DNA from: Coprinellus micaceus
Taxonomy: Eukaryota > Basidiomycota > Agaricomycetes > Agaricales > Psathyrellaceae
Length of the DNA: 64,000 bases
Reading direction: 5' to 3'
Assembly (NCBI GenBank): GCA_951394405.1
Contig: OX596344.1
Span: 2,604,001-2,668,000, forward strand
A program made the translations under genes and the position numbers. Shown here one piece after another: positions 19,969-49,783 of this stretch; position 1 is the first letter of the stretch, and the number at the start of each line of letters is the position of its first letter. The notes beneath the pieces are model-generated. The model ran no database searches and was not told the DNA's origin. It was given only the letters and a program-made list of their open reading frames with translations.

Positions 19969-20005
19969 GTTCGAATTGGTGAAGGACGGGTTCGATGGAT
20001 GTGAG

Positions 20006-20014
20006 CTTATATAC
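20006..20014 (-). promoter_or_regulatory. TATA box of FAS1 copy 1
   Basis: GTATATAAG read on minus, about 40 nt upstream of the ATG at 19968. The copy-2 promoter has only the weaker GTATAAG at the matching place. Confidence 0.6.
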
Positions 20015-20639
20015 CCACCCGGTAAGCACTCCGTTCGAGACTGAGAAGACAGGGGCTTGCCATGCCTCTCCAACGTGGGCAAAGGTGTAAACGACCATTC
20101 CTTGCGATGGGTGCGCAGCGACCGCGAGTCGCCGCAATAGGCTTGCATTAGGATGAACCAGTGTGCCAAATGACAGAGCCAATGGTCCCTCGTTAATTTG
20201 CCACACAAAGATACAGGCTTCCTGTAAAATCTCAGGGTTCAGCCTCCTCTGTGTGGGCGTGAAATCGCCTATTTTTAGATATTACCTCGGGGCGCTCTTG
20301 GCGGGCGATAGTTTCCCTCGGGCACCCTAACCGAGATCCCCGCGATCGAATAGGCGCCCGATCCAGCGTGTCAGGTGGCCTTTCATGCGAGGTGTCAGCC
20401 TTCCCGCGTAGTGCAGTGTGTTGAGCTCCGCGTTCACCAACGGCACGAGTTTGGCGTCAAGGGTGTGATGTGCTACACAGCTATCGCTGTGAATGAGACG
20501 GCGACCTGAACCCGCATTCAATTTACAGAATCTAAGCGAGGGAGACAAGGAACTCGTGAGCGTTTCCGGAGTTCTCGTTCTAGCTTGCAAAGGATTCGTT
20601 CTGCACAAGGTCGGGCCAGACTATGTATCGACTCCAAGC

Positions 20640-21691: not shown

Positions 21692-22752
21692 CTAACGAGC
21701 CACTCCGGGCGGTGCGAGGACCTGTTTAAGCCAATACATGTCAGTGATATCCACGATCTAAAAGGGCAAGGATACATATACTCACTCCTGCAAGAATGTG
21801 TGCTACGCCATTCTTCGTAATGACGTTGGCCTGCTGAACTGGCACATCGTTGACAAACAGTTGGCCATCCTTTTTATGGATAGTCACCGGCGCTCCAAGC
21901 AGGGTTTGGTACTCCTTCCCATCTTCCAGAGCCGTGGAGTATCCAACATCTCCAGAGATGATGTGGTACTGAAGGGCGGCAATCGCTTGTTCTGGTGTTG
22001 TCGCCGAAAGGTCGATGCCTGCCGCCTTAAACGCTTCGTCCGATGGTGCGAAGGACGTCAGCTTAGGTGTGTCGTCAAACGTTCCGGAGAGGCCGGTTTT
22101 TTGAACAAACTCCGACGCGATTTTGAGAGAGAGCGCCTCGGCGGTCTTAGTGCCCGACTGAGGAAGGTTAAGGACACTTCAAAGCAATTGTTAGTTCAGC
22201 ATGCTAATAAACGCAAACAATCGAGGCTCACTGATCAATGACATGGACGAATCCTCCATCGTATTGCAGATCAGGTTTGATGACAGCTGCTGCCTCACCA
22301 GCTCCAGAATACACCTTCAAGGGACCCTCTACCGAATCTAGACCCGCGGTGCCATAGGCACTCGCGAAGACGACGTTGGGCTTGCCAGGATCGAGTGTCA
22401 CATATGCGGTGTTGGTAAGACTGGTCTCCGCAACGACGCCTCCCGTCACACTGAGGTCCTTGGCAGTAAAGGTGCCAGGCAGAAGGTGGTACGCGATGAG
22501 GTCCTTGATAATCTCCGGGTTGAACGTGTCAGGGTCGATGGACGACATGAAGGCGGACATGGCTTCATCGGATGGCGCGAACAAGGTGCCGGTGGTAGCA
22601 TTGAGAGCGCCGAGGAATTCAGGGTGCTCGGTAGTGAGGACAGAGTTGAGCGCGGAAAGTTCGGGAGTCTGAGCTAGGATCTCAGCGATTCCACCGGCTA
22701 GGGCAAGAGAGGCAGAGAAAAGTAGGATACAGAAAGAGGATAAGACAGCCAT
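21692..22752 (-). CDS. FAS1 (fasciclin) domain secreted protein, copy 2
   Basis: Start at 22752 with signal peptide (LSSFCILLFSASLALAG). Two FAS1 repeats: LFAPSDEAMSAF..LIAYHLLPG..GFVHVIDQVLNLP, then SFAPSDEAFKAAG..LQYHIISGD..NGVAHILAG. The last exon encodes VLAPPGVAR. Intron positions equal those of copy 1, and most differences are conservative, as expected for a recent tandem duplication with both copies under constraint. It lies directly downstream of the Hsp70-like gene on the same strand, which is probably the ancestral position, because copy 1 carries a relic of that gene's tail. Confidence 0.9.
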
Positions 22753-23565
22753 GTTTGGACTGGCGAAATGGCGGAGTGGTGAAGGCGAAGCATTCGTATG
22801 TGGGAGTTCTTATACCGGAGGGGAGGGACTCCGCTCACCACTGAGAACATGCATGAGGTCTGCAACGCTCTTACAGGGTGCTCAAAGGTGTAGAGGCCAA
22901 GCCTCTTGGAAGTACACGCCGCCACCTCGAGTCTCCGCAAGAGGATTGCATTGGGTTGGCTGGATGCGCGAAATGACAGCTACAATTGGCTTCATTAATT
23001 GCCCGCACACAGATACATACTCTACTGCACTCCTGTGAAAAGTCAGGGTTCAGCCTACCACTCTCAATGTGCACAAGGTCGTTGGCCGTTAAAGGTGTGC
23101 TTTTGTGGGTGATACTGCCTCGAACACCACAGTCGAGATCGTCGACCCGGGATAAGCGCTGGCTACGACGCGTCAGGTGCCCCCATGCTGGGTGTCACCC
23201 TTCCCGCATAAAATGGTGCGGTGAGCTCCGCAATCACAAACGGCACGAGCGTTTGCGTCAACTCTCGGGTGTGAGGCAGGGTACACAGCTATAGGCGTAA
23301 ATGAGGCCCAAATGTCTGGGCCCTCTTTCTGTCTGTAGAGTCCACGCCGACTTCGACGCTCGACCAGGGAGATCGCTAGAGATCTCCTGGGTCCTCTGGA
23401 TGAGTCTTTCTGGCTTGGCGGGAACTTTCTCTGAGATTCTGCATGGGTTCTACAAATAGTTTCTGTCAACTAAATGCAGGGATTTAATCTTGGTAAAACA
23501 TCATGCTTGCTGGACTCCTAGATTGGCAACCGACCCGATCAGTCAGGCTCCTGACACAATCCCCA
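21692..23565 (-). repeat. Segmental duplication, FAS1 unit copy 2
   Basis: Counterpart of 18902..20745. Here the upstream flank runs into an intact Hsp70-like 3' end, marking this as the likely source copy. Confidence 0.7.
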
Positions 23566-26923: not shown

Positions 26924-29195
26924 CTAAATGCCGGACGGTCTGGCCGCCACCATGGTTTCCCGCATATCACGGTCGTCGATGCGTCTCGATTTGGTGTGAG
27001 GTGCCTCTGGAAACTGGACCTCTTCAAAACGACGCTTGAAGTTCGGTTCTACAAACCCAGTAGCCACAGAAGATGGAGAGGGGATGTTCTCGCTGCCAGC
27101 CATTAGATGCGAGTCTGAAGGTTGATCCCGACGACTAGAGGATGTGGACGCAGGTACAGACGCAGTTTCAGAAGCAGTGGTCGCCTGTATCGCATCGTCG
27201 AACATCTTCAGAACTGCGGAGTAGCGCTCTTCGCACTGGGAGAGTAGGGGAGAGAGCGAGTTTGTCGTCACCGTCTGGCTGGATTCAAGGAGGTCATCCT
27301 TCTCATGCCTCCGGTCGAAGATCCAGTCGCAGAACTCATTAAACAAGCCTGCACAGACAGGCCCCCACGCCGCAGCTACCAGCCTCGAAGCACGAAACCC
27401 ATCGCCAGCAACAGACATTTGAATCACACTTTTCATGCCCGCAGACGCAGCTAGGCCATCAGTGTCCCACTCCAAAACCATGGTCGATCCTCCATCGTCA
27501 CTGGGGAGGCGACTACCGTCGGGTCGGTAAACAAGAAAGAGATAGGCCAGGACGTAGAAGAATGATTCCAGATCGTCCAAATAGTCGTGGTCCGGATGTT
27601 TGCCTGCTCGAGAGTAAGCGCTTCGGAGGACGGAAATGGACTGGAAGAGGCGGGTGCCCTGGAGGTTCGGGTATCAGCACAGGCTCACGATAACAGGCGA
27701 CTCACTATGTTCGAATCTGCCTTGACGCTAGGATGCGCGTCGGTTGCCCTGGAGGCGTGGTCGATGAGAATACCCCTCTGACCGTCTGGAGCTCCGTCGT
27801 TCCCGAGTAGTATGTTGTTGTGGGACACGTCTCGGTGCAGAATCCGGATGCCATCACTCGCGAGACGTTGGTGGGCTAAGATATGTCAGCGGAGGGGATA
27901 GACTGAGATGAAGCCAATGCGTACCCGCTATTGCGTCACGGAGGGCGCAGAGCACTTGAAGAACCGAGGTGAAGAACTCGATGGGTTTGCCATACGATTT
28001 CATCACGATTCGGATGGCTACGCGGTTGGTGTACCGCCCCCAGGTACTCGGGCAACGAAAGCTCTTCGTTTCCCCGCGCCCGACCTCGAAGGATACCATC
28101 TGAACGACCCCAGGCAGACCTTTGACGAGCTCCAGGAGCTCGTGCTCCGGCGTGTGGTCCTCAGGAATCCAAGAGACTTTGACTATCAGCTCTTCCCGAG
28201 TCTCGGGGTCCTGAACCTTCCAGCACGTTGTGGCCCGTCCACATATGGAGTCTCCTGGAGTCGACACCTCCTCAAGGATGGGGTACTCCTTCAGTTCTCC
28301 CGTCGCCCCAGTGGTGGTCACCGTTCCCTTCTCCTTCCTCCCGTCGGCGATGGCCCACTGGATGCTGTTGTCGAAGCCGAGAGAGCGCTCGTTTGCTGAG
28401 GATACGCCAGCGACCAGTCGAACGAATGCCGCGGGGTTTCGGTGGATGTGGATTCGTGGGGTGATCTGAGCTCCGGCGCGGTCGAAATGCACCAGGCGAA
28501 CGTGATCCTCAGTAATGGCGAGCGACCTGACGTAGAACCGGTTGGGTTGCGCTCGAAGGATCTCCCTGCTTCATGGTCAGTTGGGGAATCAAGGATACGC
28601 ACGTCCGGGAAAAGAACACGCACCTCGAATAACTGGCCAGCTCTTCAAGAATCTCCATTTCATCAACGTCTTCACCCAATTCCGGCTCGGTCGTCACTGA
28701 GAAACACGTTGCAATGTTGGAGAACCCGGTGTCTGCGGCCAATACACGCTGGAAGCGTTCTTGAGCCTTAGGCGGAGCTGAGATTTGGAACGAGGGGCCC
28801 GCTGCACGAACAATGAGGAATGGGCAAGTACGGTATCCGTCTTCGTTTTCCTCGTCACACCCGTCAACTCCCGCAGTATTGACGACGTCTCTAGCCACCC
28901 CAGGGTGCGATGGCTTCACGAATGCTCGCACAATGGATGATAGAATTTTGTAAAGCGGCTCCACCACATCCTGGGTTGACGTCGGGAATTCGGGAATGCT
29001 CCATTCCTCTCTGGATGAGTCGTAGTAGTCCGTTTCTTTTAAGAAGGCCTGAATTTCTTCGTCCTCGGCGACGTCGCGGTAGACCTCTTCGGGATACGCT
29101 TTGCTCGTAACGGTGAAGCGAGGGTGTGGTTCGTCGGGCTCAGGTGCTCTGCGCACCACGTCGGTTCCCCTAGGGTTGTGAGAAATCGAAATCAT
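26924..29195 (-). CDS. FunK1-type protein kinase, copy 1
   Basis: Start at 29195. Exon 1 is the N-terminal FunK1 region (DEMEILEELASYSR), spliced to EILRAQPNRFYVRSLAITEDHVRLVHFDRAG, the family's conserved stretch before the kinase lobes. The N-lobe lysine lies in LIVKVSW. The catalytic loop is HRDVSHNNILL. The following metal-binding segment reads GILIDHASRA, where copy 2 (47042..49296) reads GILIDLDHAFRA: 6 nt (codons L-D) are missing here, around 27759/27760. YLDDLESFFYVLAYLF is the FunK1 signature after the loop. The C-terminal tail is Ser/Thr-rich and basic. All joins are in phase, so it can be translated, but the loss in the DFG-equivalent segment may make it a pseudokinase. FunK1 kinases are mushroom-specific and of unknown substrates. 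Confidence 0.85.
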
Positions 29196-29345
29196 GAATG
29201 GAGGGACCTCGTCGCGGACAGGATGTCAAGAACGGGGAGGTTACGGAGGATGGACGCGTCGATGGTGGTGGTCAAGAAGAAAAAGACTTGGAAACGACGT
29301 CGGCGCATTGAAGGCGACGTGATCAACCCCACGTGATCTCGTGAC
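26970..29345 (-). repeat. Outer inverted repeat, left arm (FunK1)
   Basis: Inverted counterpart of about 46895..49265. Homology covers the whole gene from KSRRIDD near its 3' end to roughly 150 nt upstream of the ATG (shared CCCGTTCTTGA / CCCGCTCTTGA and ATCACGTG). Flanking sequence beyond is different. Confidence 0.8.
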
Positions 29346-29994
29346 CTGTAGCACACAGCCACTTCAATTGGCGCCCTCGCTGGGAGCTGCTGGGAGGCAG
29401 AAATTAGGTTCGATACCGTCCCTCAACGAAGGCCAGTCGCAGGTCTAGACGGAAATAGTGAGGGCCCCTCGCCCAGTGACGGTAACGAGTCTAAGAGTAG
29501 ACTGAGACTAGTGGCACACACGGCCCGGGGCCACGCGTTGGCGCAATTTCGGAGAAAGAAAAAAAAAAAAAAGACTCTGTACAGAGCCGGGGAGCCTGCC
29601 ACACACTTCTTTACCAACCAAAAAAGAAGACTTTTGGCATTTCTACGACGCTTTTGGTAGCCCGAGCCACCTCTCGCCGGCATCTCAGCGGCATCGACGT
29701 ATCACGTGCGTACGTGCCTAAACTGGAGCCTTTGGAACCACGTGCGAATAAGCTGGATGGCATGAATGTTATAGGGCGACTTGCCCGATTGGGGGAAAGT
29801 GATGGCTTTTCCCAATATTTGGTCGTCCAATATTAAAACCCAGAGTGTTTCGTTTCGCCTCTTGATCTCAAACCACGACCATCTCCTCCTCCCTCTCCCA
29901 GCCAGCACCCACAACTAGCTGAACCTTTGCTCCCATTGCTTGATATCGGTGAGCTGCCTTTGCTCTGTGCGTTTAAGCCAGATCCTGATCACAA
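29346..29994. other. Intergenic, promoter of disordered-protein gene
   Basis: Contains an A-run at 29559..29572. No gene is supported. Confidence 0.5.
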
Positions 29995-31008: not shown

Positions 31009-31721
31009 GCGTGTGTGGTCGCCCCGTTTATCGGAACTTGAACGAGGACTTGCTCCGTTTATTGGGTACGATTTATCCGTCCCTTTACTTTGACCCACAT
31101 ACATACCACATAGATTCGAATTCCCACCAACATTTCTCAGCTCCCGGTTTCTTTCTCATATATATTCCCACTGTCTCTAACTTATCGCATTGTCGCTTCG
31201 AAGCCATTATTTTGTTTTGTATGGATTCCCCGGTTCCCCTTCCTTTGCCAGCGCTGAATGAGATGTTTGTATGTAATGCCATTCAATTTTCTCGCAAGGC
31301 TCGTGGCTCGATCTGCTACCATCGGATCTCGTTTCCCAAGGGGTGCTCGCAAACTTTCTCTCGGTATGTCCACTCGTATGTCCACCTCGTCTGTTCGATT
31401 CCTGCCTCGGGAGCGCTCTCCATTTAAAGTAAATTCGCTTGTACACACTACAGGCGTTCGATGTCTCACCAGCTTCAGGACGATCTACCTCTATGCTTCG
31501 AACTAACGCGAGGAGCTACTAGTGCGACATTCAGGGGGTGAGCTTTGCGTATGCAATGATTGAATTATGCGTCTCTGACTGTCGCCAATGGAGGGTAGGG
31601 ACAACCACACCATACAAATTGTCAATGCTTGCCGCTGCTCAGTTATTTTATTTAAAGTGTTTGTACACGGGCTCGGTCCGACTAGCATGAGGCCAGACAT
31701 GAAGGAAATGATCGGCGCGTT
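31009..31721. other. 3' flank and polyadenylation-like AT-rich segment
   Basis: Frames here are short and featureless. On minus, AAATAAAATAA near 31645-31655 lies just past the last hairpin unit and could end a minus-strand transcript of the array. Confidence 0.4.
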
Positions 31722-32230
31722 CTGAGCCCGGGGCTCAACAAACTGGGAAACCTAGTAGACCCTACCACCCTCACTGAGGGGAGTCGAGCGAGCGAGGATC
31801 CATAGTCGAAGCAGCGGGCTCAGAGCCTCGCCATCTGTGACATTTGTAGTCGTCATGAAGCGGTAAAATTTGTTGCTAAGAAAACATCGTTAGTAGCTAA
31901 TGTGAGATTGAGAGAGGAGGGCACGTTTCGGAAACTGTGGGCTCAAGGTGGGATGCGTGCTAGTTGTCTCGCATTGTTAAGGGTGAGAAGGCCTGTAAAT
32001 AGCGTCAGGCCTGCTATATGAGTAATCGCGAATTGGGGGCTCACTTTTAATCTCATAGGTAAAACGAGAGCCGGAGAGCCGGAAGAAGCGATGGACGCAC
32101 CCCGTGCCCGCCAGTGTCATGGAGTATCACCGAGTAAACCCCACCTCTCTCTTTGGGGAAGGTCGAGCGTACCGGGTCAAACACCTCAACATGGGCGGGT
32201 TCAGGGGGTACTATGGTGACCCCTGCATTG
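31722..32230. repeat. Direct repeat within the hairpin array, copy A
   Basis: Matches 34934..35452 in the same orientation over two hairpin units and the spacer between them (shared AACATCGTTAGTAGCT, GTGAGATTGAGAGAGGA, AGGCCTGTAAATAGCGTCAG). In this copy the second unit's arms are decayed (CCGTGCCC/GGGTTCAG). Confidence 0.8.
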
Positions 32231-32839
32231 GAGTTCTCTTTCGTCTGGCTCGGTAGCCAGAGAGACTGGGGGATGGGTACAACATCAAAATCGACGATCC
32301 CATCCGGAGAATCCTCAGGGGATACTCACTTTCATAACGATACCTGTAGAGACGGAAGAAGCGATGGGCGCATTCTGAGCCCTACAGTCATACTCCTATG
32401 GGACCTAGGTAGTCCAACCGTTCTGACCGAGGAATACGAGGGGCCACACGAGTAAGAGTGGGCTCTCAGGATGTGTTGTTGCGATCCCTGCATCGGAGTT
32501 CACGATCGCCCCGTCGTTGGCAGGTCGGTGGGCATGGGTGCGACCTCAGCAACAGCGATCCCTAAATGAGAGCGGCGAAGTACTAACTTTCATTTTGAAG
32601 GGCAAATGAAACGCGTTGAGGGAGGGGAGGAAGCGATCAACACACCCTGAGCCCACAGGTACAACGTTAGCATAAACGATCCCATCCCAACAGTGTTATG
32701 GGAGATGGTCACATTCGGTGGCTGGATCGAGGGCTCAACGTGTATCGTGGTGCAGACCTCTGAATTAGAGCTCACGTCCGTTTTGTCTGGTCGCTGGCGG
32801 CCTGTGGTATGAGCACGACGTCGGCGCTTCAGCATCAAC

Positions 32840-34690
32840 GACCCTGATGGTGATGCTCACTTTCCGATTATACCGGGAGAGCTTGCGAGAGGCGGAAGTT
32901 GCGATGGACGCACCCTGAGCCCGCAGGTATTGTATTGTTACAGACCTAGTAAGCCCAACTGCCCTCATCGAGGGAAGCCGAGCGTACGAGGGCTGACAAA
33001 AATAGGAGCGGGCTCAGGGTGGGTGATCGCGAACTTCCGAACTTGGGAGGACTGGTACCCATGGTTAGCCTATGTTTCGTCTTTAATTTGAGACGGAAAC
33101 TCACTGGCCATCGTCACACCCAACCCGCGAAGACTGCAAACGCATGTCGTCACTTCATATCCCGTAATCTGAGAGGGAGACCAGACGCTCACTGTTTGCT
33201 TGCATGCTGATTTGGTGATTGACGGGAGGAGGAAACGGGCATGATAAGTACACACCTGAGCCCCATCCAACACTTTAACAAGGCCACCTAGGATGCTGCA
33301 CCACCCTCACAGAGGGCAGTGGAACGCCCTGGGTGTGTCGATGGGAATGGGGCTCAGACGTGCAGAATCAACATCATGTTCGAGCTTTTGGGCACTGGCC
33401 TGGAGGTGATGCAGCATATTGTCTGCCTTCGGAGTGTTAGGTCGGCCGGTGGTCCTATATCAACGATCGATAGAAGTAGTCAGCTTCTTTGAAAGCACAC
33501 CGGATGAATGTGTGTACGTACCCACCTCTGCTGCGGTGCAGGACCAGGGGTAGAAAGTGGAGGAGAGAGCGGACGATGAAGCCGACTCGAGCCCACCTTC
33601 CACGGTCGGTTCCGACGTCGTATGCACAGCTCCTGTCCCTCGAAAGAAGCTGTGGACACGAGATCGGGAAGGCGAGGGTGGGCTCGGAACGGCTGGTGCC
33701 GACAATCGCCGTGGAAGGGCAGGTTGATTCGGCTGGGTAATCCAAAGGCTGGATGTATCGAGCTTGGATCGGTAATTGAGGGTAGGCTGCATGTTGAGTT
33801 TCTGTGCGAGTGGGATCGAACAGTATATCAGTCGAAGTAACTAATCGGAAGCGAGGGCGTGGGCTCACAGCATCACCACCAACATAAACCCCTCCGCTTC
33901 ATCTCCTCAAACAAGGCAAGCCCGCCGACTCATCGAGCCCAGGACCTGAGCCCAACAGACGACGACAGGTGGCACCGAGCAGACTGTCCAGTCCTCCGAG
34001 AGGAAGAGAGAGAGAGCTGGGTACCGAAGGTTGCCGTGTGGGCTCAGACGCGGGGTCGAGTCCAGCTGGGTGGTTGATGGGTGGTGGAGGGCGAGGCTGG
34101 TGGTGGGGATGGGCAAAGAGCTTCTTGGTACTAATGGTCTTGGTAATGGACGATATCGACGGATGGAATCTGCGGTCGAGTGAAGATAAGGAGGGAAGAT
34201 CGATGCCTTGAAGACTCCGCCTTATCGAGTGAATCGCGCTTACCGTCCAATGAGCACCCGATGGGCTACCCATAACGCAGCCTGGGGACGCTCGATGTGG
34301 ACGATCTTCCCGGGTCCCGAACTTGGTCCGGGATGAATGGCGATGGATGAGCAGATGACGAGGGACCGAGGGTGCAGCCCTCTTTATCTTGTATGGGTTG
34401 TTCGAACGGAGAGAACGTGCTGCGATGTCCTGATGAGATCTAAATCAGTAGATGGGTAGATGGGTGGACGGATGGATACTCGATCTATGATAAATGGATA
34501 AATGGATAGACCGTCCTGGTTTTTCAGACCGCACTCGACAATCGATGGAGAGATGAACGACGTAGATGGACAACCCTTCCTCTCGTCACACACGTCACCA
34601 CTCGAAGCACACTTGCAAGGGGTTCACACGTTCCATCACACGGGCGCCTATCACGCAATTCCCCTTCCTCCACTTACCCTCCTTCCACTT
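32840..34690. repeat. Inner inverted repeat, left arm
   Basis: Reverse-complement match to about 42895..44670, including four hairpin units, the intron-like spacers and a GATG/GATA-rich segment. Shared landmarks include TCGATCGATAGAAGTAGT on one strand and ACTACTTCTATCGATCG on the other. Confidence 0.85.
33588..33686 (-). repeat. Hairpin unit with compensated arms (CGAGCCC/GGGCTCG)
   Basis: The first pair of the TGAGCCC arm is changed T-A to C-G on both sides. It lies inside the inner inverted repeat. Confidence 0.65.
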
Positions 34691-34755
34691 GCCTGCTCTC
34701 CCCCCAAGCTTCTCTCACCAACCCTCCTAACGCACGCAGCTCATGTCATTTATGG

Positions 34756-34774
34756 AAAAAAAAAAAAAAAAAAA
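34756..34774 (+). repeat. Poly(A) run of 19
   Basis: Uninterrupted A run just outside the inner inverted repeat; a similar shorter run lies at 29559..29572. It could be a simple homopolymer or the tail of an old retrocopy; no upstream coding relic seen. Confidence 0.5.
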
Positions 34775-34933
34775 GACACAACCCCACATACAGGGTATTA
34801 AGGGATACTGCTAACACACAGACGAAACTGGTAACCGGTATGATTTATTCTCCCACGTCCTGACGCCCATTCCATGGCCATGTGAGTGTTCAATCCACTT
34901 CGTGCTGGGGCAGACGAGGAACGAAGCGATCGC

Positions 34934-35452
34934 CTGAGCCCACGGCTCAACAAACTGAGAAACCTAGTACACGCTACCGCCCTCACCGAGAGGAGTCGAG
35001 CGTACGAGGGTCCAAAGTCGGAGCAGCGGGCTCAGAGTATCGCCAGTCGCGGGGCCCGTGGTTTTCAGGTAGCTGTACATTTGTAGGTAAGAAAGGAAAC
35101 ATCGTTAGTAGCTTATGTGAGATTGAGAGAGGAAGGGACGTTTCGGGAACCATGGGGCCCAGGGTGGGACGCGCCCCAGTTCTTCATGCTTTTGAGCGCG
35201 AGAAGGCCTGTAAATAGCGTCAGGTCTGCGATATGAGTAATCGCGAATTGGGGGCTCACTTTCATCTTGTGGCAGAGACGAGAGCCAAAGAGCCGGAAGG
35301 AGCAATGGATGCACCCCGAGCCCGCCAGTGCCACGGCGCATCACCGAGTAAACCCCACCTCTCTCTTTGGGGAAGGTCGAGCGTACCGGGTCAAATACCT
35401 CGACATGGGCGGGCTCAGGGGGTGCTGTCGCGATCTCCAAACCGGAGTTCCG
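34934..35452. repeat. Direct repeat within the hairpin array, copy B
   Basis: Counterpart of 31722..32230, with better-preserved outer arms in both hairpin units. Confidence 0.8.
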
Positions 35453-36133
35453 TCTGGCGCGGTCGTTGGCGGGTCTGTGAGCATGAGCGCGACGTCAGCA
35501 TCAACTATCCCAGCAACGATTCAGAAGAGAGAGGTGTACTCACTTCCATATCCTCCCTCACGCGAGTTTGTGGAGAAGAGGGAGAGATGAACGCAGGCAC
35601 CCTGAGCCCTATTCCAGTACTGGGCGAGACCTCGGGCACTCTACCACCCTCGTCGAGGATGATTGGGCCCCGAGGACTCGCACTAGCAGGAGAGGGCTCA
35701 GAGCGACGTGCACGCAGCAACCCCCGAAGTGGAGGTCATGTTCGCCTGTCGGTGGCGGGCCTGTGGGTATATATCAGTATCTCCTTAGCACCAGCGGACC
35801 CGGAGAGGTGTGCTCACTTCCATTATTGATGAAGAGAGCTTGGGGGAGGCGGAGGAGGCGATGGGCGCACCCTGAGCCCGTATGTACGCACACTTGATAC
35901 CTAGTAAACCCAACTACCCTCATCGAGGGAAGTCGAGCGTACGAGGTCTAGCGCGGGTAGGAGGGGGCTCAGAATGCGTCGTCGCGAACCCTGCATCGGA
36001 GGTCACCCGCCCGGCGCGGTCGCTGGAGAATAAGGAAGACGTCAGCAACGGCGACCCCAACGGCGAAGAGAAGTGTACTGACTTTCGATTGTTGACGAAG
36101 AGAACTTGGAACGGGGGAGGCGATGGACGCACC

Positions 36134-36236
36134 CTGACCCCTCCCACATTGGTTCTCCTGGGACCTAGCAAACCCAACCACCCTCATCGAGGGAAGCCGA
36201 GCGTATGAGGTCCCAGGAGCATTAGAGAGAGCTCAG
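36134..36236 (-). repeat. Hairpin unit with perfect 12-bp middle stem
   Basis: CTCCTGGGACCT at 36155..36166 is perfectly complementary to AGGTCCCAGGAG at 36208..36219, enclosing the inner hairpin CCCTCATCGAGGG at 36181..36193. The outer arms here carry two mismatches (CTGACCCC against GAGCTCAG). Confidence 0.8.
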
Positions 36237-36710
36237 AGTGTGTCATCGCGATCCCCGGATTGGAGGTCATGTTCGCCTGGCCTCGTCGTTGGCGGGCCTG
36301 TGGAGATATGTAAGACGTCAGCTTCGACGATTCCAATCGCGAAGAGAAGTGCACTCACTTTCCGATTTCCGATTGTTGACGAAGAGAGCCTAGGACAGAC
36401 GGAAAAGGCGATGGACACACCCTGAGCCCGTATGTACGCACACTTGATACCTAGTAAACCCAACTACCCTCATCGAGGGAAGCCGAGCGTACAAGGTCCC
36501 GCTCGAGTAGGAGAGGGCTCAGAATGCGTCATCGCGGTCCACAAACCGGGTTGGAGTTCATGTTTGGATGGATGGATGGACGTTTTCGCTTTGAATGAAG
36601 GGTCTGCTCAGTCAATTGTCTTGAAAGCTGTGAAGTGGACTCACCCTACTTATACCCTTGACCCTTCCCTACGGTCGTGGAAGGGAGACCCGTCGACCCA
36701 TAGAGTACAC

Positions 36711-36814
36711 CTAAGCCCAACATTCCCCAAATAATTGGGGACCGAGCGAGCCGTCCCGTCCTCTCAGAGGAAGGGGAGGGGGGCTGGGTCCCAAGGAGGG
36801 TGGGGTGGGCTTAG
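36711..36814 (-). repeat. Hairpin unit with compensated outer arms (CTAAGCCC/GGGCTTAG)
   Basis: The fourth pair of the consensus arm is G-C to A-T changed on both sides, keeping pairing. TTGGGGACC pairs with GGTCCCAA inside the unit (one bulge). The unit at 37130..37233 has the same changed arms. Confidence 0.75.
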
Positions 36815-36816
36815 AT

Positions 36817-36837
36817 GGGTTTGGGTTTGGGTTTGGG
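36817..36837 (+). repeat. GGGTTT short tandem repeat
   Basis: Three GGGTTT steps followed by GGG, in a G-rich stretch beside a hairpin unit. It is not the TTAGGG telomere repeat. It could form a G-quadruplex. Confidence 0.7.
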
Positions 36838-36896
36838 TGGGCTGGGGCGTCGGAGGGTTGCGCGAACCCTTCACGGGAGTTCATGTTCGTCGTTCA

Positions 36897-36924
36897 ATGT
36901 CCGATGTCCGATGTCCGATGTCCG
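36897..36924 (+). repeat. 7-nt tandem repeat, ATGTCCG x4
   Basis: Four perfect copies of ATGTCCG, between two hairpin units. Confidence 0.85.
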
Positions 36925-37233
36925 CACTGTGTGTATGAGCACGACGTCAGAGAGGATCTTGACGATGATCAGGAGATGTCGATGAGTACCCACGTTATCT
37001 GGATTTCGTCTCGGGGGTCGCTTAGGTGTGGTTGGGTTACGGGATCTTGTGTCTTTCTTGCGTCTCTCCTGCATCTCCCCTGCTTCGTCTCCTCGAAGAA
37101 AGGGTGTGGAGGGAGACCATCGAACCCACCTAAGCCCGACGGCCCACAGAAATGAGGGACCGAGCGAGCCGTCCCGTCCTCTGAGAGGAAGGGGAGGGGG
37201 GCTGGGTCCCAAGGAGGGTGGGGTGGGGCTTAG

Positions 37234-38733
37234 ATGGGTTTGGGGTCGGGTGGCGTGTCGAAGGGCCCTGGGACCCCTGCATTGGAGTCCACGCTCAACG
37301 TCCGCACTGTGTGTACGACGCTTCAACATCGAGGATCTTGACGATGGTCAAGAGATGGAGTACCCACTTTATCTGTATTTCACCTCGAGTTACTTATCTC
37401 GACCGCATCGATTGTGGGTGTACGTGATCGGCGACGTGCGCGACTGGATGGGTTGAACGACGTGGGTGTGGGGATGAGAGATGTGATCTGTTGGTTCTTG
37501 GGCGGTGAGCGGTGAGATGGGTAGATCGAGGATAGATAGGCAGATCAAGTCGATGGATCAAGGATAGGTAGATCAAGTCGATGGATGGATCAAGGATCGA
37601 TGGATGGATAGAGCGATAGATCGTGTTGGTGAGCGCGTACCCGATAATCAACGATTAAGTAGACATACCTCCGTGTACGATTGAGAAGGTTCCCGAATAC
37701 ATCGTCTCCCCCATCGAATAATCGCTCGCCTACCGCCCACCCATCGCCCGGTGATGGCATTGACAACGGGCAAAGAACAAGGAACGCAGATGGCCGATGA
37801 GAAGCCTCTTGAAAACACACAAGCGGCTACAAGCGGCTAGTACAAGCGGAGGAGATAGAGATAGACACCGTGATAACCATAAACCAAGCACACCCTACCA
37901 GACCCTACCACGCCGCATATGCACGAGCCGGCATGACGACCTGGGTCCTGCAACGCCTACCACGTCCGTCCGGGCGCGGTTGTAACTTGTCGGGAAGGGG
38001 ACGGGTGTGTGTGCGGTTGACGAGTGGGTGGGGGAGTTGGGTGAAGAGAAGGGTGAGGAGGGTGAGGAGAGGGATCTTCGTCTCTCGTCTCTCGTCTCTC
38101 TCTCTCTTCCTCCTCCTCCCTCACCCTCACCCTCACAGAGCAGACCAAGCAACCACGGAACCCCACTCCGCTAGACTCCGCTTCCCTTCCTTCCCATGAC
38201 AACCAACGACACCCGCATCACCTCCATCACCGCATCGAAATTTCATCAACCCACCCTGCACAACGTTCCCACGCGCTTTCCCACCCAAATCCCCTTCCCC
38301 TTCCCTTCCCCCAAGGCGTTGCTTACGTTTTTTATCATCGTTGTCGTCGAGTCGTTCGTTGTTACGCTCTCTCTCTCCTTCTTTCTCTTCTTCTGCTACG
38401 CTCGATTCGATTCTACGTTCCTTTGCTTGAGAGCGACCGAGCGCGAAGCACGAATCGAGAAGAGACGGGACTAGGCCAGCCACGTCGTCCAGTCAGTCAG
38501 TCAGTCTATCAGCCTCATCGACGATCGTCCTCCCCTTCTCTCTTCCTCCCTCCTTCTCCAACCTACGAAGAAGCGAACCAGCGTACCTCACACACACCCA
38601 CACCCAAAAGACCCACCCGCAACCCGCGGACCACGTTCCTTCCTACAGTCTCTACAACCAACCAACCGACCAGCTATCTATCTACCGATACCTTTTCTAC
38701 TCAAGAAAACACCTATAACAAGAACACCAAGCG
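37234..38733. other. Low-complexity spacer and promoter of membrane-protein gene
   Basis: Holds a GATC/GATG/GATA-rich microsatellite-like stretch (about 37510..37620), similar to stretches near 34440-34500 and 43090-43125 beside the inverted arms, and pyrimidine-rich tracts (TCGTCTC repeats and CTCACC repeats, about 38080..38140). The long pyrimidine-rich leader up to 38733 fits a 5' UTR. Confidence 0.5.
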
Positions 38734-41939: not shown

Positions 41940-42460
41940 GTGTGATGTGACTTGAGTGTGGGGAGAGGTGTATTTGTAGCGACGACGTTGTGGTTCCCTT
42001 TCTCGATTCTTGTACTATCCCTCAGCCGTCCTCTCTTTTTAAGGAGAGGGGGAGAGGTCGTCTTGTGACTTGATAATTCTTTTGTGTTTGGGTTTTTGAT
42101 ACCCCTTTTTTTCTTTCTCGACTCTTCTTTGACTCCGCGCCTGCCCTGCCCTGTTCCTACGTACCCCCTGCCACGCGCCTACGTACCTCCCCCTTATATA
42201 TGGGAGAGAGGGAGGAGGGAGGAGGGTGTGGGGTGGTTGTGACTTTTTGGTACCCTGATCTTGTGAATTATATCTATCTATCTATTATATTGATCTCTTC
42301 TCTTCCTTCCTGCCTGCGCGTCTACGTTTTACCTTTTTCTCGCCCTTCCCCATTTCGTATTGGCGCGTGGGTTATACATATACGATAACGCTGCGCGTGT
42401 ACACCCCTTGCTCATTTACGTTTATGGTTACCCTGTCCGTGTACCCCCCCCTTGCACATT
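41940..42460. other. 3' flank of membrane-protein gene
   Basis: T-rich 3' region with short TATC/TATA microsatellite (about 42271..42290). No gene seen. Confidence 0.5.
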
Positions 42461-42601
42461 AGGTAGGCTCACGGTTGTCGCAGTTCGCAACGCAGTTCGC
42501 AGTTGCAGCGCCGAAATGGCAGAGACGTCACAGTTTTCACACGCAAGTTGGCGGGCGTGATGCAACTGCAGCTGCGAACTGCGACAACCGTGAGCCTACC
42601 T
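42461..42601. mobile_element. MITE-like element, 141 bp
   Basis: Perfect 29-bp terminal inverted repeats (42461..42489 and 42573..42601), beginning AGGTAGGCTCACGG and ending CCGTGAGCCTACCT. The flanks read ATT on both sides, consistent with a 3-bp target-site duplication. The 83-bp interior has no coding capacity. The perfect ends suggest a recent insertion or an active source elsewhere. The superfamily is not certain. Confidence 0.85.
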
Positions 42602-42960
42602 ATTTACGGTTACATTGACCCCATTCGCCCCTTGAAGCTTGACCTTTTGTCTTCGTCTCAGTACAGTCTCGTCCGCACGTGCTACAGCCTATTGCGACGA
42701 CCGCGACCGATCTTACGTTTCTGGATTCCCGAACCCTTTACGACTTTATTGATATCGGCCGAGTCTTGTGTTTTATACCGGTTAGGTGTTTCGTGTGTGT
42801 TTGCAGTATCGCGGTAATACCCATTTATGTGTGGTTGTGCTTTTTGGTTCGTGTGATTGTGGCCTTGTTTTTGTTTTGTTTGAACGACTGAGAGGAGGGT
42901 GGAAGGTGGGTACGAGGAAGGGGGGATGGGTGATAGGCGCCCGTGGTGAGGCGTGTGAAC
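42602..42960. other. Spacer between MITE and inner inverted repeat
   Basis: T/G-rich; no gene supported. Its right end (from about 42895) begins the inner inverted repeat. Confidence 0.45.
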
Positions 42961-44670
42961 TATATAACTGTGCTTGGTGACGTGTGTGACGAGAGGAAGG
43001 GTTGTTCGTTGTCCTTCTTCGTCTCTCCATCGATTGTCGAGAGCGGGCTGGGAACACGTCTGCGATCTATTCATCGATCGTAGATTGGGCATCTATCTAT
43101 CTATCCATCCATCTACTGATTCAGATCTCGTCAAGAGATTGCGGGACGTTCTCTCGGTTCGAACGCCCCATACAAGATAAAGAGGGCTGAAGATCGGATC
43201 CCTGCACCGTGCACCTTCACCATCCATCCTGAACCGAGCTCAGGAGCCAAGAAGGTCGTCGACGCCGTCCACAATCCAGCGTCCCCAAGCTGCGTTATGG
43301 ATAGCCCACCGAGTACGCATTGGACGGTAAGAAGCGATTCACTTGATAAGGCGGAGTCTTCGATGGATCGATCTCCCTGTCCTTACTTTCTCTCGCCCCC
43401 AGATCACCCACACCTATGGTCCCAAGCCCCATCTGAGCCCACCCCACGACCTCTGGTACCCAGCCCGCTCTCTCTTCCTCTGCGAGGCCGCGACGGCTTG
43501 CAGGGTTCCCGTGGCCTGGGTTTGGCGGGCTCAGGTCGGTTCTGTGAGTCGGTGGATCCGTCCTTTTTTAGGAGATGAAGCGGACGAGCTTACGTCGGAA
43601 GTGGGAGGGGCGGGAGGCCAAGGGACAGAGGGTGAGTCCACTTCGTCAATTTCGATTAGTCCTTCGACTGGTATACAGTGCGTTCCCACTCGCACAGAAA
43701 CTCAATATACCTTCTACCCTCAAATACCGATCCTCGCTCGGCACGTCCAACCTCAAGATCACTGAACCCACAACTCTCTCCACAGCGGCTTTCGACGGCC
43801 AGCCCTCCCGAGCTCGCTCTCATCTTCCCGATCTCGTGTCCACAGCTTCTTTCGAGGGACAGGATCTGTGGATACGAGGTGGATCGGAATTTGGGACTGG
43901 GCTCAGGAAGGTTTCGTTGTCCGCTCTCTCCTTCGCTTACTACCCCTGGTCCTGCACCACAGCAGAGATGGGTACGCGCCCTCTTTCCTCCTGTATACTT
44001 CCAAAGAATCTAACTACTTCTATCGATCGTTGATATAGGACCACCGGCCGACTTAACACTCCGAAGGCAGACAATACGCTGCATCACCTCCAGACCAATG
44101 CCCGAAAGCTCGAACATGGTGTTGATTCTGCACGTCTGAGCCCCATTCCCATTGATACACCCAGGGCGTTCCACTGCCCTCTGTGAGGGTGGTGCAGCAT
44201 CCTAGGTGGCCTTGTTAAAGTGTTGGATGGGGCTCAGGTGGGTACTTATCACGCTCGTTTCCTCCTCCCGTCAATCACCGAATCAGCATGCAACCAAGCG
44301 GTGAGTATCTACTCTCCCTCTCATATTATGGGATACGAAGTGACGACATGCGTTTGTAGTCTTCACGGGTTGGGTGTGACGATGGCCAGGGAGTTTCCGT
44401 CTAAAATTAAGGGATTAAATGTACTTAGGCTGGCGATGGGTACCCCCAGATCGTGTCCATCCCTGGCCAAGCCCTCGTCCGGAGGTTTGCGACCACCCAC
44501 CCTGAGCCCGCTCCTATACCTGTCAGCCCTCGTACGCTCGGCTTCCCTCGATGAGGGTAGTTGGGCTTACTAGGTCCATAATGATACAATACCTGCGGGC
44601 TCAGGGTGCGTCCATCGCATCCTCCGCCTCTCGCAAGCTCTCCCGGTCAATAATAGAAAGTGAGTGCATC
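42895..44670. repeat. Inner inverted repeat, right arm
   Basis: Reverse-complement partner of 32840..34690. Clear hairpin units are 43433..43534, 44136..44237 and 44502..44604. A degraded one near 43760-43915 has arms CTGAACCC and GGGCTCAG. Confidence 0.85.
42961..42967 (+). promoter_or_regulatory. TATA box candidate of the right-arm hairpin locus
   Basis: TATATAA in GTGAACTATATAACTG. The left arm has GTGAACCCCTTGCAAG at the aligned place, so only the right copy has the box. Confidence 0.55.
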
Positions 44671-44850
44671 TCTCTTGGTGACTGGAATCGTTAAGGCTCA
44701 CCCATCGACCCGAGGGGGCACTCCTTGACGAGTGGAGTGGAGTAACGTTGGTGCCTCCCATGCTGGACGTATTCTGGGAGCTCAGCATTTTGTCGCGGTC
44801 CGTCTCGAGGACCCCGTTAGGCTTGAATAAATAGTCGCTTTGTCATTACG
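42990..44850 (+). ncRNA. Candidate spliced transcript carrying hairpin units (right arm)
   Basis: A compact plus-strand unit: TATA box upstream, a GATG-rich 5' part, a short ATG frame (MDSPPSTHWT) ending at a GTAAGA donor at 43327 with a CCCCCAG acceptor at 43401, later GT..AG candidates between the hairpin units, and AATAAA at 44826..44831. An open frame continues into exon 2 (ITHTYGPKPHLSPPHDLWYP) as far as 43765. The left arm encodes a related peptide (LSPHGNLRYPALSLFLSE), so a protein product remains possible. Non-coding is a working label only. No family recognised. Confidence 0.4.
44826..44831 (+). terminator. Polyadenylation signal AATAAA
   Basis: Canonical hexamer about 220 nt after the last right-arm hairpin unit; the only clear one near that locus on plus. 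Confidence 0.5.
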
Positions 44851-44953
44851 AGACTACAGTACTAAAATACAGTCTTTCGCAGTCCAAGCTTCAAGAGATG
44901 TCAACAGGTAAACCCGCTACCGGAGTCTCTCCAAAGCTGCTTCACCGACCTCC

Positions 44954-45809
44954 TCAGCACGGGGGCCCTCTCCTATGGTTCATCTGGACGAACTCGTCTT
45001 GACGGCGGGAGCCCCTGCTCGGGTGTGTAACGACACCGTAGAACGTGTTACTAGAGTGAACTACTCGAACGGGACCCCGAGGCCCATCTCCATGCCACCC
45101 AGCATTATTGTTCGCCAACACAGGGTACTCCGCCAAGCCATTCCTGGAGCCGCTGGGGGCGTTGGGAAGGGGTTTAGCGTTTCCGTTCATTGAACCACCG
45201 CGGTAGTTGTAGTTCCCGAAGTGCTTGGGCTGGATAAAGGAATGTGTGAGTATTGGCTGCCCGAGTGCGATGGGTGGGCGGAGTCGACGTACGTTGGGTT
45301 TAACGTTGATCTGTCGACTTGGGTCTTGGTAAGCGCCTACTGGAGCGGCTTTATGTACGTTCGAGTTGTACACAGCCTTGCGAACTTCGTTTCCTGTGCG
45401 TGAGTCTTCACGGTGAATATTTTGGAAATAAAATAAAATAAATCAGAACGTAAGACGCCTTTCCATCGTCACTGGGACACATCGTACCTCGACCAGAGAC
45501 GAAAGTGTCCTGCTTAGCGGGCATATTCTGAGTATTCCTCGTCGCCGTCCCCGCGTTTCTCACCAACGGTTGGACTTCAGCCCTGTTGTGTCGTATATCA
45601 GCCCGGCTTGGCCCAGAAGCCTGGGGTTGGGGCCTGGGGGTGCCTTTCGCAGCATCCCACATGGCTGCGCGTTCGTCCTTGGATGGGACGCCCGCGGCGA
45701 CCTTGGCTTTTATCGCGTCCTTCTTCCCGGCTTGGTACTGGAGTAACTCTGTAGCTGCCGCACCCTTCTGTGCGGGGGTGAGTGGGGGGCGCCCGCCGGA
45801 GGAGCTCAT
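44954..45809 (-). CDS. RNase T1/N1-like protein without signal peptide
   Basis: Start at 45809 (MSSSGGRPPLTPAQKGAA), about 65 nt after a TATA box on minus, so a longer N-terminus is unlikely. An Ala/Lys-rich segment (PSKDERAAMWDAAKGTPR) precedes the ribonuclease part, which spans introns: GNEVRKAVYNSNVHKAAPVG, PKHFGNYNYRG, GLAEYPV, VRVVHSSN and FYGVVTH. The Glu of EYPV, Arg of VRVV and His of VVTH fit the catalytic Glu/Arg/His of guanyl-specific RNases. It is a paralogue of 56809..57882, which has a clear signal peptide. RNases of this type cut RNA after G. This copy would stay intracellular if the start is right. Confidence 0.7.
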
Positions 45810-45872
45810 CGAAGCAATGGGATGTGGGGCTGAAAGTGAGGAAGCTGAGGACGAAGCGGAAGATGGAACTGT

Positions 45873-45882
45873 GTATATATAC
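45873..45882 (-). promoter_or_regulatory. TATA box of intracellular RNase-like gene
   Basis: GTATATATAC on minus, 64-73 nt upstream of the ATG at 45809. Confidence 0.6.
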
Positions 45883-46894
45883 TCTGAAACACGCGGAATG
45901 AGCGTGTTCTAAAGCTTAGTTCCAGTGTGATGGGGCGGTGTTACTAGGGACGTAGTTTGAGCGCAGCATTCCCGCTGTGATAAGATGATAAGCCAGAGTG
46001 GTCAAGTGAGGATAGTATGAGGCAGGCCCTGGAAGACAACCGTCGAAACTGGTCCCCACTTCGGGCAAGTAAAGTATAAGATATAAGGTAGGTATTTGAC
46101 GGCAGTACAATCGATGCAGACGCTCGGTCTCCCCTGTGCAACCTTGCAACACGGCGCCCATATCAGTTTTACGCTAAGCCCGTTTCGTCGATAAGCTGAG
46201 TAATCGCCATTTTGAGCGAGGTCTCGTGTTCATAACAGAGATTCTAGACCCATGCTCCCACCACCGAACTTCGGGAACCTGCATTCTCGAAAGTTACAGT
46301 TAGATTCGTCAGAAGACCCTCTGCGCTTGCCCTGCACTCGAGGCCCATCTTTCGAATGTTCCAGAGCGCGCCAAAAGTTATATATACCTTCCAAATACTA
46401 ACCTTCCATCAACAGTGCCCGCCTTACCGATTTAGATGGAGATACGTTACGGTGAAACCCCGCGCTAAACAGGCGATGGGCGCTTAGATTAAGATATTTG
46501 TCCTTATTTGCAAACTTCTGCTGGGCCATGTCAGGTAGTCAGGCTCCCATCACTACTGCATAGCAGCCGTAAGTAGGCCAGCGCCCCATTTCGCCCTCTT
46601 TGCGAACTTCTCCATTTTCTTCCCCTTGCTTCCTTTGTTCTTTTCTATTCAATTTGCCTAGCGCGGTCTTCCCCTGGCGGCGCTCTGCGCCTGTGCCCTA
46701 CCTTGCTTCGCCTTGCATGGAGACTCTACCCCATCCTTCTGACTTGCCATACATCCTATTTCTCGTCCTCACGGCCTATGGGGCAGCATTGGCTCAACAT
46801 TTGCTTTTCCGGATGTGACCCCACCCGAAATCGGTGTGACCGGGCGGGTACCCAAGACGGGCGCCTAATGGGAGTGGCTGTGTCTACGGGTGAC
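45883..46894. other. Intergenic, no gene recognised
   Basis: Contains the upstream regions of the RNase-like gene (minus) and of FunK1 copy 2 (plus). A 72-codon hydrophobic plus frame near 46600 is not supported. Confidence 0.45.
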
Positions 46895-49265: not shown

Positions 49266-49296
49266 TTTTTCGCTGACCCCCAGTCCATTGCGTTAA
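47042..49296 (+). pseudogene. FunK1-type protein kinase, copy 2, frameshifted
   Basis: Begins MISASNSPRGADAAPEPDEP like copy 1. At about 47129-47131 it has one base fewer than copy 1 (AGCAAAGTGATCCC versus AGCAAAGCGTATCCC), which puts the rest of exon 1 out of frame with the ATG. Near 47455-47470 there is also a 27-nt in-frame deletion relative to copy 1. Everything downstream is well preserved: LAITEDHVRLVHFDRAG, ELVVKDSW, HRDVSHNNILL, the complete metal-binding segment GILIDLDHAFRA that copy 1 lacks, YLDDLESFFYVLAYLF and a Ser-rich, basic tail. A downstream start could still yield a kinase-domain protein, so silence is not proven. Intron positions equal those of copy 1. Confidence 0.7.
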
Positions 49297-49783
49297 TTTT
49301 TCCCTTTCCCTTCCGACTCCTCGCGTCATGCGTGTCTTCGTTCACCATGGTTTTAGACAGGGAGGTTGTATAGCCATCTCGTCATGCTCAATCTCCCTCT
49401 GCCCATTTCTGCTACGGAATTGGCCCGATCCCTCTCAGTTTCCATTTCCCCTTCACTTATTTATCACGCCAATCGCTGACACGTACATGAGAACAGATGA
49501 GGGGCCTATTAACTATCAACATCTGCAGGGTGTACGCATTGCGATGCTGCCAACCCGAGCACGTCCACTTCAGTCGGCGCACCTGGTATGCTGCATCTCG
49601 TTCTGAGAATGAGGTGGAGTGCCTTAGGTCTGTCAGCATGAGAATAGGGCGCGCTCAGGCGGGTATGCGTCGCTCTAGGTTTCCTTGTGTTTCATGAGCG
49701 CTTGGCGCGGGCATGGAAGGGGGTCGTGCACACGATTTGGCTGCATTCTCGCGCCATTGTACTGTCATTTACACTTTTTGAAG
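49297..49783. other. Intergenic 3' flank of FunK1 copy 2
   Basis: No gene supported; short frames only. Confidence 0.45.

What the first reader, a model, noticed from the sequence alone, without database searches (positions are those of the whole stretch)
31722..37233. A previously unnamed array of ~102-nt three-tier hairpin units
About 16 units with nearly constant length (mostly 99-104 nt) share outer arms CTGAGCCC / GGGCTCAG, a variable middle stem and an inner hairpin of the CCCTC-GAT-GAGGG type. In 35872..35972 (minus strand) the outer stem extends to about 13 pairs including two G-U. In 36134..36236 the middle stem is a perfect 12-bp match of quite different sequence. Spacing of about 250-300 nt and one unit per intron-bounded segment is not what I know from MITEs or CRISPR-like arrays. 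This is the best candidate for an undescribed system in the window.
Basis: partly seen in the sequence, partly recalled or inferred. Interest (0 to 1): 0.87.

Follow-up and report, generated by a model that had tools for sequence, protein, structure and literature searches.

The report
Mushroom gene array of RNA hairpins
A mushroom-type fungus carries a cluster of about twenty related long RNA hairpins, most of them apparently one per exon of a non-coding gene, which looks like an undescribed precursor of small regulatory RNAs, although no RNA data were available to prove it.

Summary
Sixteen units lie on the minus strand (31722-37233), four on the plus strand (43433-44604, inverted duplicate), one diverged unit at about 49541-49672. 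Of these first 20 units, 16 folded better than all 300 dinucleotide shuffles on the sense strand. Stems run past CTGAGCCC/GGGCTCAG to hairpins of about 130 nt with 41-54 pairs. Sixteen aligned units covary (77% of cells paired, 32-48% when slid). Variable middle arms fit their own partners on average (0 of 20000 permutations).

In array 1, intron-like motifs lie between units on the sense strand (11, against 2 antisense); array 2 gave none. The spliced model of one transcript has 20-25 stops per frame. Exact outer arms at this spacing occur nowhere else in the 50-Mb genome. Rfam has no match. Dicer, Argonaute and RdRP genes are present.

Best reading: spliced non-coding transcripts with one Dicer-substrate hairpin per exon, comparable to Drosophila tandem hpRNAs or a polycistronic pri-milRNA. 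Small RNAs are not shown; four 22-mers tested had no convincing near-perfect target.

The parts
31708..31837 (-). hairpin unit (transcript B, last)
   Evidence: z -3.1 (2 of 300 shuffles as good); 87.3 bits, used to build R1
32088..32218 (-). hairpin unit
   Evidence: z -3.2; 84.9 bits, used to build R1
32361..32483 (-). degenerate hairpin unit
   Evidence: z -2.6 (2 of 300); 33.2 bits, not used to build R1
32633..32752 (-). very degenerate hairpin unit
   Evidence: z -1.5 (29 of 300, not significant); 15.7 bits, E 0.061
32901..33031 (-). hairpin unit
   Evidence: z -8.0; 116.9 bits, used to build R1
33242..33371 (-). hairpin unit; 97.7% identical to its array-2 copy
   Evidence: z -5.6
33573..33701 (-). 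hairpin unit with a different core
   Evidence: z -6.9; 42.1 bits, not used to build R1
33932..34061 (-). hairpin unit
   Evidence: z -4.6 (antisense -4.7); 84.4 bits, used to build R1
34920..35049 (-). hairpin unit (transcript A, last); paralogue of 31708-31837
   Evidence: z -4.2; 88.8 bits, used to build R1
35302..35432 (-). hairpin unit; paralogue of 32088-32218
   Evidence: z -4.8; 93.6 bits, used to build R1
35588..35715 (-). hairpin unit
   Evidence: z -6.8; 78.5 bits, used to build R1
35858..35986 (-). hairpin unit
   Evidence: z -5.9; 104 bits, used to build R1
36120..36250 (-). hairpin unit with a perfect 12-bp middle stem
   Evidence: z -5.7; 102.1 bits, used to build R1
36408..36536 (-). 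hairpin unit; middle folds with a branch
   Evidence: z -4.2; 106.4 bits, used to build R1
36697..36828 (-). hairpin unit; CTAAGCCC/GGGCTTAG arms, strand not decided by folding
   Evidence: z -5.0 (antisense -5.1); 89.6 bits, used to build R1
37116..37247 (-). hairpin unit; CTAAGCCC/GGGCTTAG arms, strand not decided by folding
   Evidence: z -5.4 (antisense -5.7); 92.5 bits, used to build R1
43419..43548 (+). hairpin unit of array 2; folds better on the minus strand
   Evidence: z -2.3 on + (4 of 300), -4.2 on -; 85.6 bits, used to build R1
43794..43920 (+). hairpin unit of array 2
   Evidence: z -5.8; 46.2 bits on +, 18.7 on -, not used to build R1
44122..44251 (+). hairpin unit of array 2
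   Evidence: z -5.1; 87.3 bits, used to build R1
44488..44618 (+). hairpin unit of array 2
   Evidence: z -5.5; 112.1 bits, used to build R1
49541..49672 (+). diverged orphan hairpin unit downstream of the FunK1-type kinase gene
   Evidence: 35.8 bits on +, 38.5 on -; fold of 49535-49678 z -4.0 on +, -1.2 on -; strand taken from the fold
34880..37700 (-). inferred transcript A (ends set by hand); introns 37307-37367, 36927-36993, 36604-36644, 36298-36358, 36023-36082, 35761-35817, 35475-35543, 35208-35259
   Evidence: GT..AG segments of 41-69 nt; no long frame in the spliced model; inference
31500..34700 (-). inferred transcript B (ends approximate); intron-like segments 33802-33868, 33455-33525, 33052-33104, 32802-32860, 31993-32044
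   Evidence: inference
42890..44760 (+). inferred transcript C, inverted copy of the 5' part of B (42890-43404 and 43403-44664 align to 34700-34168 and 34078-32856)
   Evidence: (74.8% and 80.0%); strict intron scan found none on this strand

Best explanation
The cluster is a family of spliced, non-coding RNA genes: two inferred transcripts on the minus strand and one on the plus strand. It grew by tandem duplication of an 'exon with hairpin + short intron' module and by an inverted segmental duplication. Most exons carry one long hairpin with an outer base, a constant clamp (CTGAGCCC/GGGCTCAG), a variable paired middle, and a conserved apical core with a small loop. Most likely mechanism: the transcript is made and spliced, each exonic hairpin is cut by Dicer into duplexes of about 21 nt, and Argonaute loads one strand to silence targets in trans, with the variable middle (or the conserved core) as guide. 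Shown by sequence: hairpins, covariation, G-U strand bias, sense-strand intron motifs in array 1, no long frame in the spliced model of transcript A, restriction of the exact clamp pair to this locus, RNAi genes in the genome. Inferred: transcription, splicing, dicing, Argonaute loading, targets.
For: 16 of 20 units beat all 300 shuffles. Covariation on 16 of 20 units: 77.2% of cells paired against 32.2-48.1% slid; 30 of 54 pairs with double changes; 0 of 500 shuffles on four of five measures, 10 of 500 on the fifth. Own middle arms pair better than swapped ones (mean -9.89 against -6.76; 0 of 20000 permutations; 18 of 20 units). G-U cells 91, A-C cells 36, same direction in 14 of 16 units. 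The four units left out of the model score higher on the sense than on the antisense strand. Intron-like motifs in array 1: 11 sense, 2 antisense, 1.7 +/- 1.3 in random sequence. No long frame. Hairpins more conserved than most flanks in several duplicate pairs. Dicer, Argonaute, RdRP genes.
Against: No RNA data: transcription, splicing and small RNAs are unseen. Four 22-mers had no convincing target in the genome at up to 3 mismatches. Array 2: 0 sense and 3 antisense intron motifs. Units 32647, 33946, 36711, 37130 and 43433 do not fold better on the assigned strand by z. Middle arms of 32915, 36422 and 44502 pair no better than swaps. Changes between recent copies are rarely double compensatory. 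Two hairpins (33932, 33573) are not more conserved than their surroundings, and one intron is 96% identical.
Confidence: 0.58

Rival explanations
1. A structured long non-coding RNA whose repeated hairpins bind a double-strand-binding or chromatin protein (as roX or Xist repeats do, recalled) and are not diced into guides.
For: Clamp and apical core are the most conserved parts (0.83-0.93 and 0.61-0.63 identity, against 0.31-0.36 for the middle; 10 representatives). No convincing target for four 22-mers. Hairpins in exons would stay in the spliced RNA.
Against: A long stem paired also through its variable middle is more than a local binding motif needs, and the genome has Dicers.
Confidence: 0.22
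2. Relics: an inverted repeat became an exon, was duplicated, and the hairpins now decay without a function.
For: Degenerate units 32375 and 32647; diverged copies 33932/43419 and 33573/43794; few double compensatory changes between recent copies.
Against: Covariation among diverged units, own-partner pairing of the middle and hairpins better conserved than most flanks in several copies.
Confidence: 0.12
3. A known mobile element (MITE or other inverted-repeat transposon) or a satellite.
For: Inverted-repeat units in tandem.
Against: The clamp pair at this spacing occurs in 11 places, all in this window; DNA queries with both halves of array 1 and with the orphan unit found nothing outside the window (the first look of that tool may miss short or diverged copies). 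Introns between units and covariation are unlike a satellite. Target-site duplications were not examined.
Confidence: 0.04
4. A protein-coding gene with repeated exons whose codons happen to form hairpins.
For: Exon-intron layout.
Against: 25, 20 and 20 stops in the three frames of the spliced model of transcript A, longest run 123 codons; unit lengths differ by steps other than three. Transcripts B and C were not translated.
Confidence: 0.02

Closest known systems
Drosophila hpRNA loci, especially the hp-CG4068 cluster (passages of PMC10317233)
   Same: Tandem long hairpins, stated there to be produced from a common transcript, copy number changing by duplication (20 copies in D. melanogaster, 9 in D. 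simulans); precursors of Dicer-2-dependent siRNAs.
   Different: Here hairpins appear to sit one per exon with introns between them, units are strongly diverged, the middle varies between constant clamps, and no near-perfect target was found for the four 22-mers tested. Small RNAs are not shown here.
Fungal milRNA hairpins (PMC9757828 abstract, passages and section 11; PMC6145500 passages and section 15)
   Same: Long-stem hairpins in a genome with Dicer and Argonaute; six C. cinerea candidates are reported within a short distance on one contig.
   Different: Section 11 of PMC9757828 describes fungal hairpins as short and inter-duplex length usually under 20 nt; the passages seen there do not mention clusters. 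No C. cinerea candidate clearly matches this array.
Polycistronic miRNA clusters of animals and plants (recalled)
   Same: Several hairpins on one transcript, arising by duplication.
   Different: There the mature arm is usually the conserved part (recalled); here clamp and apical core are conserved and the middle varies.

Membership tests
miRNA / milRNA precursor | Hairpin folding better than shuffled sequence | tested here: met
   16 of 20 units with 0 of 300 shuffles as good; 32647 not significant
miRNA / milRNA precursor | Precise small-RNA duplex with 2-nt 3' overhangs | not testable with these tools
   no small-RNA data held
miRNA / milRNA precursor | Dicer and Argonaute genes in the organism | tested here: met
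   Piwi pieces at about nine places, RNase III pieces, Dicer dimerisation plus RNase III domains
miRNA / milRNA precursor | Conservation in other species | not testable with these tools
   no other fungal genome could be searched
hpRNA / endo-siRNA locus | Long inverted-repeat transcript or tandem hairpins on one transcript | tested here: inconclusive
   hairpins in tandem with sense-strand intron motifs between them in array 1; transcription unseen
hpRNA / endo-siRNA locus | Arms complementary to a gene elsewhere in the genome | tested here: inconclusive
   four 22-mers, up to 3 mismatches: only two hits outside the array, both at 3 mismatches, as many as in the reversed control; other arms not tested genome-wide
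MITE / inverted-repeat transposon | Dispersed copies in the genome | tested here: not met
   exact clamp pair: 11 places, all in the window; no outside hits
MITE / inverted-repeat transposon | Target-site duplications | not tested
   not examined
Satellite DNA | Near-identical head-to-tail repeats | tested here: not met
   units diverged (mean column identity 62%), separated by intron-like sequence
Protein-coding repeat gene | Open frame through the exons | tested here: not met
   transcript A only: 25, 20 and 20 stops
Known Rfam family | Match to a covariance model | tested here: not met
   none at gathering score in the window, none at E up to 1 in 31400-37800 or 42900-49800

The most novel reading that the evidence does not exclude
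The locus is a modular guide array. A constant clamp and apical core act as a processing scaffold, and the paired middle is a freely changing payload, multiplied exon by exon through duplication. It would make a diversified set of small RNAs whose targets lie outside the genome or drift quickly (mycoviruses, partner or host transcripts, lost transposons).
Probability: 0.2. Interest if true: 0.92.

Novelty: new variant of a known kind. Interest (0 to 1): 0.7.

Why it matters
[quoted passage not shown] A locus with about twenty related, covarying hairpins, found from sequence alone and with duplicates to compare, would be an unusually firm genetic starting point. If clamp and core guide processing while the middle varies, it would also show how a small-RNA locus can diversify its output by exon duplication, and it gives exact probes and deletion targets.

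Tried and rejected
Rfam: no match. Coding repeat: stops in all three frames of transcript A. Dispersed transposon or satellite: pattern and DNA searches of the genome. Arms of 20 units against 125 kb of neighbouring and Argonaute/Dicer sequence: two exact matches of 14 nt or more (a 14-mer and a low-complexity 17-mer), 1.6 expected. C. cinerea milRNAs (21 printed in Table 2; the text says 22), best ungapped match against five shuffles each: only cci-milR-2 exceeded its shuffles, by one letter (17 of 25 against at most 16); I do not count that as a match. Further members nearby: none with model R1 in about 100 kb outside the window, 60 kb flanks and about 40 kb Argonaute/Dicer loci; the rest of the genome could not be scanned with the model. 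Organism: a neighbouring protein found no homologue; the Dicer piece gave C. cinerea as best named relative (52%) and a metagenome protein at 91% over 81%, so I say only 'mushroom-type fungus'. Paper searches without a description of intron-separated hairpin arrays in fungi: listings, plus passages of PMC9757828 and PMC13136243; the library is partial and listings were not all opened.
Full report
WHAT IS THERE. The window is C11:2604001-2668000 of a 50.3-Mb genome in 17 contigs; C11 is 2.82 Mb long. Two neighbouring genes carry the fungal kinase domain PF17667 and a Dicer piece has C. cinerea as best named relative (52%), so this is a mushroom-type fungus; I do not know the species. CTGAGCCC occurs 31 times in the window against 3.07 expected. 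A scan for paired arms printed 29 candidates. I kept 20: 16 on 31722-37233 and four on 43433-44604. Of the nine dropped, four were alternative ends of kept units and five were others, one of which (49555) came back later.

FOLDING. All 20 units were folded on both strands against 300 dinucleotide shuffles. On the strand I call sense (minus for array 1, plus for array 2), 16 of 20 had no shuffle as good, with z from -3.2 to -8.0. The others: 31722 (2 of 300), 32375 (2), 43433 (4), 32647 (29; not significant). The sense strand had the lower z in 15 of 20; the exceptions are 32647, 33946, 36711, 37130 and 43433. With 25 nt of flank, 17 of 20 fold as a single unbranched stem (32375, 36422 and 43433 branch); energies run from -46.9 to -90.3 kcal/mol, 17 of 20 below -60. 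In the best units the stem continues outside the clamp as GCGATGACGCACC/GGTGCGTCCATCGC-like arms. Folded with 14 nt of flank, the units compared had 41-54 pairs.

COVARIATION. Sixteen of 20 units (leaving out 32375, 32647, 33587, 43808) were aligned with 14 nt of flank. The 54-pair structure came from their own folds, which by itself favours it over slid versions. Cells paired: 77.2%, against 32.2-48.1% slid. Thirty of 54 pairs have changes on both sides. None of 500 shuffles reached the observed value on four measures; 10 of 500 did on the fifth, further pair types. The sequences are related, so these are not probabilities. A second test took the middle arms of 18 of 20 units (leaving out 32375 and 32647): mean duplex energy -9.89 kcal/mol for own partners and -6.76 for swapped ones; 0 of 20000 permutations did as well. 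Three units (32915, 36422, 44502) pair no better than swaps. G-U cells number 91 and A-C cells 36, in the same direction in 14 of 16 units and opposite in 36697 and 37116; G-U but not A-C pairs are expected if the RNA of this strand is what folds.

EXONS AND INTRONS. Between units of array 1, short GT..AG segments with branch-like CTRAN sites lie on the sense strand. A strict scan found 11 on the sense strand, 2 on the other, and 1.7 +/- 1.3 (maximum 6 of 200) in random sequence. I wrote its splice-site list after reading array 1, which favours that strand. In array 2 the same scan found 0 sense and 3 antisense (random mean 0.5, maximum 3), so introns there rest only on alignment to array 1. 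Joining the nine inferred exons of transcript A (205-333 nt; outer ends set by hand) gives 25, 20 and 20 stops in the three frames and a longest run of 123 codons. Transcripts B and C were not translated.

DUPLICATION HISTORY. Self-comparison shows 43403-44664 and 42890-43404 as inverted copies of 34078-32856 and 34700-34168 (80.0% and 74.8%), the two kinase genes (26973-29376, 46859-49265) as an inverted pair at 82.9%, and 34934-35463 as a repeat of 31722-32254 at 80.9%. Identity of hairpins between copies: 33242-33371 97.7% (flanking exon 88-93%, introns 82-86%, a 21-nt exon piece 100%); 32901-33031 92.4% (neighbours 44-83%); 32088-32218 89.3% (exon neighbours 66-74%, but the next intron 96%); 31708-31837 83.1% (54-72%); 35858-35986 92.2% (42-75%). 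Against this, 33573-33701 (76.4%; neighbours 70-92%) and 33932-34061 (70.6%; neighbours 68-82%) are not better conserved. Between recent copies most shared pairs are unchanged and double changes are rare (0 or 1 in the eight closest pairs compared). In the 35858/36408 pair the 3' arm up to the clamp is unchanged while the 5' middle differs.

A FURTHER MEMBER. A covariance model from the 16 units finds the four units left out, each better on the sense strand (33573: 42.1 against 17.6 bits; 43794: 46.2 against 18.7; 32361: 33.2 against 14.6; 32633: 15.7, E 0.061, with no antisense match listed), and a new one at 49541-49672 (35.8 bits plus, 38.5 minus). The new unit folds with z -4.04 on plus and -1.15 on minus. 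About 100 kb of other sequence from the genome gave no match at E up to 10.

HOW RARE. CTGAGCCC-N76..98-GGGCTCAG matches 11 places in the genome, all in this window; the reversed control matches one. DNA queries with 34850-37700, 31600-34850 and 49500-49720 find nothing outside the window, but that tool scores only a few first-look candidates. The model itself could not be run on the genome.

RNAi MACHINERY AND TARGETS. Piwi pieces: 23 on contigs 4, 5, 9 and 11. RNase III pieces: 7 on contigs 1, 4, 5 and 7, the one on contig 1 below the cut-off. One locus has Dicer dimerisation and RNase III domains, with a second RNase III in the next frame. RdRP pieces: 27. Target search covered four 22-mers with up to 3 mismatches (3' middle of 35872/36422, 5' core, 3' core, 3' middle of 33256/44136). 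Outside the array only the 5' core matched, twice at 3 mismatches, as often as its reversed control. Other arms, seed-type targets and foreign targets remain open.

INTERPRETATION. I read the locus as spliced non-coding genes bearing one Dicer-type hairpin per exon. From clamp to loop the 5' arm is 46-49 nt in 16 of 18 units, 48 in 10. With a base of about 13 nt this comes near three Dicer lengths, which would put clamp, middle and core near successive 21-nt steps; that register is inference. Among 10 representatives of the 16, mean identity is 0.83-0.93 in the clamp, 0.61-0.63 in the core, 0.31-0.36 in the middle and 0.30-0.52 in the base. This suggests a constant scaffold around a variable payload, but the conserved core could equally be the working part.

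COMPARISON. By build the nearest described thing is the Drosophila hp-CG4068 cluster, tandem hpRNAs from a common transcript (passages). Fungal mi/milRNA hairpins are described as short (section 11 of PMC9757828), and C. cinerea candidates do not clearly match. It plausibly works like these; membership is unproven, because small RNAs could not be tested and target complementarity was tested for four 22-mers only. I rate it a new variant of a known kind.

Noticed in passing
26973-29376 and 46859-49265: Two fungal-kinase (PF17667) genes form an inverted duplicate at 82.9% identity on either side of the hairpin arrays.
   Followed up: partly
42460-42602: A near-perfect inverted repeat of about 30-nt arms (read by eye) just upstream of array 2, unrelated in sequence to the units; possibly a MITE.
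   Followed up: no
31993-32044 and 35208-35259: A paralogous intron pair is 96% identical, more than the neighbouring exon sequence; unexplained, perhaps recent gene conversion or a functional intron.
   Followed up: no
19018-20497 and 21805-23305: Direct duplicate (70.4%) overlapping two similar predicted proteins; the one at 22228-22752 has a fasciclin domain.
   Followed up: no
51661-54132 and 60729-63521: Two long minus-strand frames of 823 and 930 aa with TPR and TPR-S matches.
   Followed up: no
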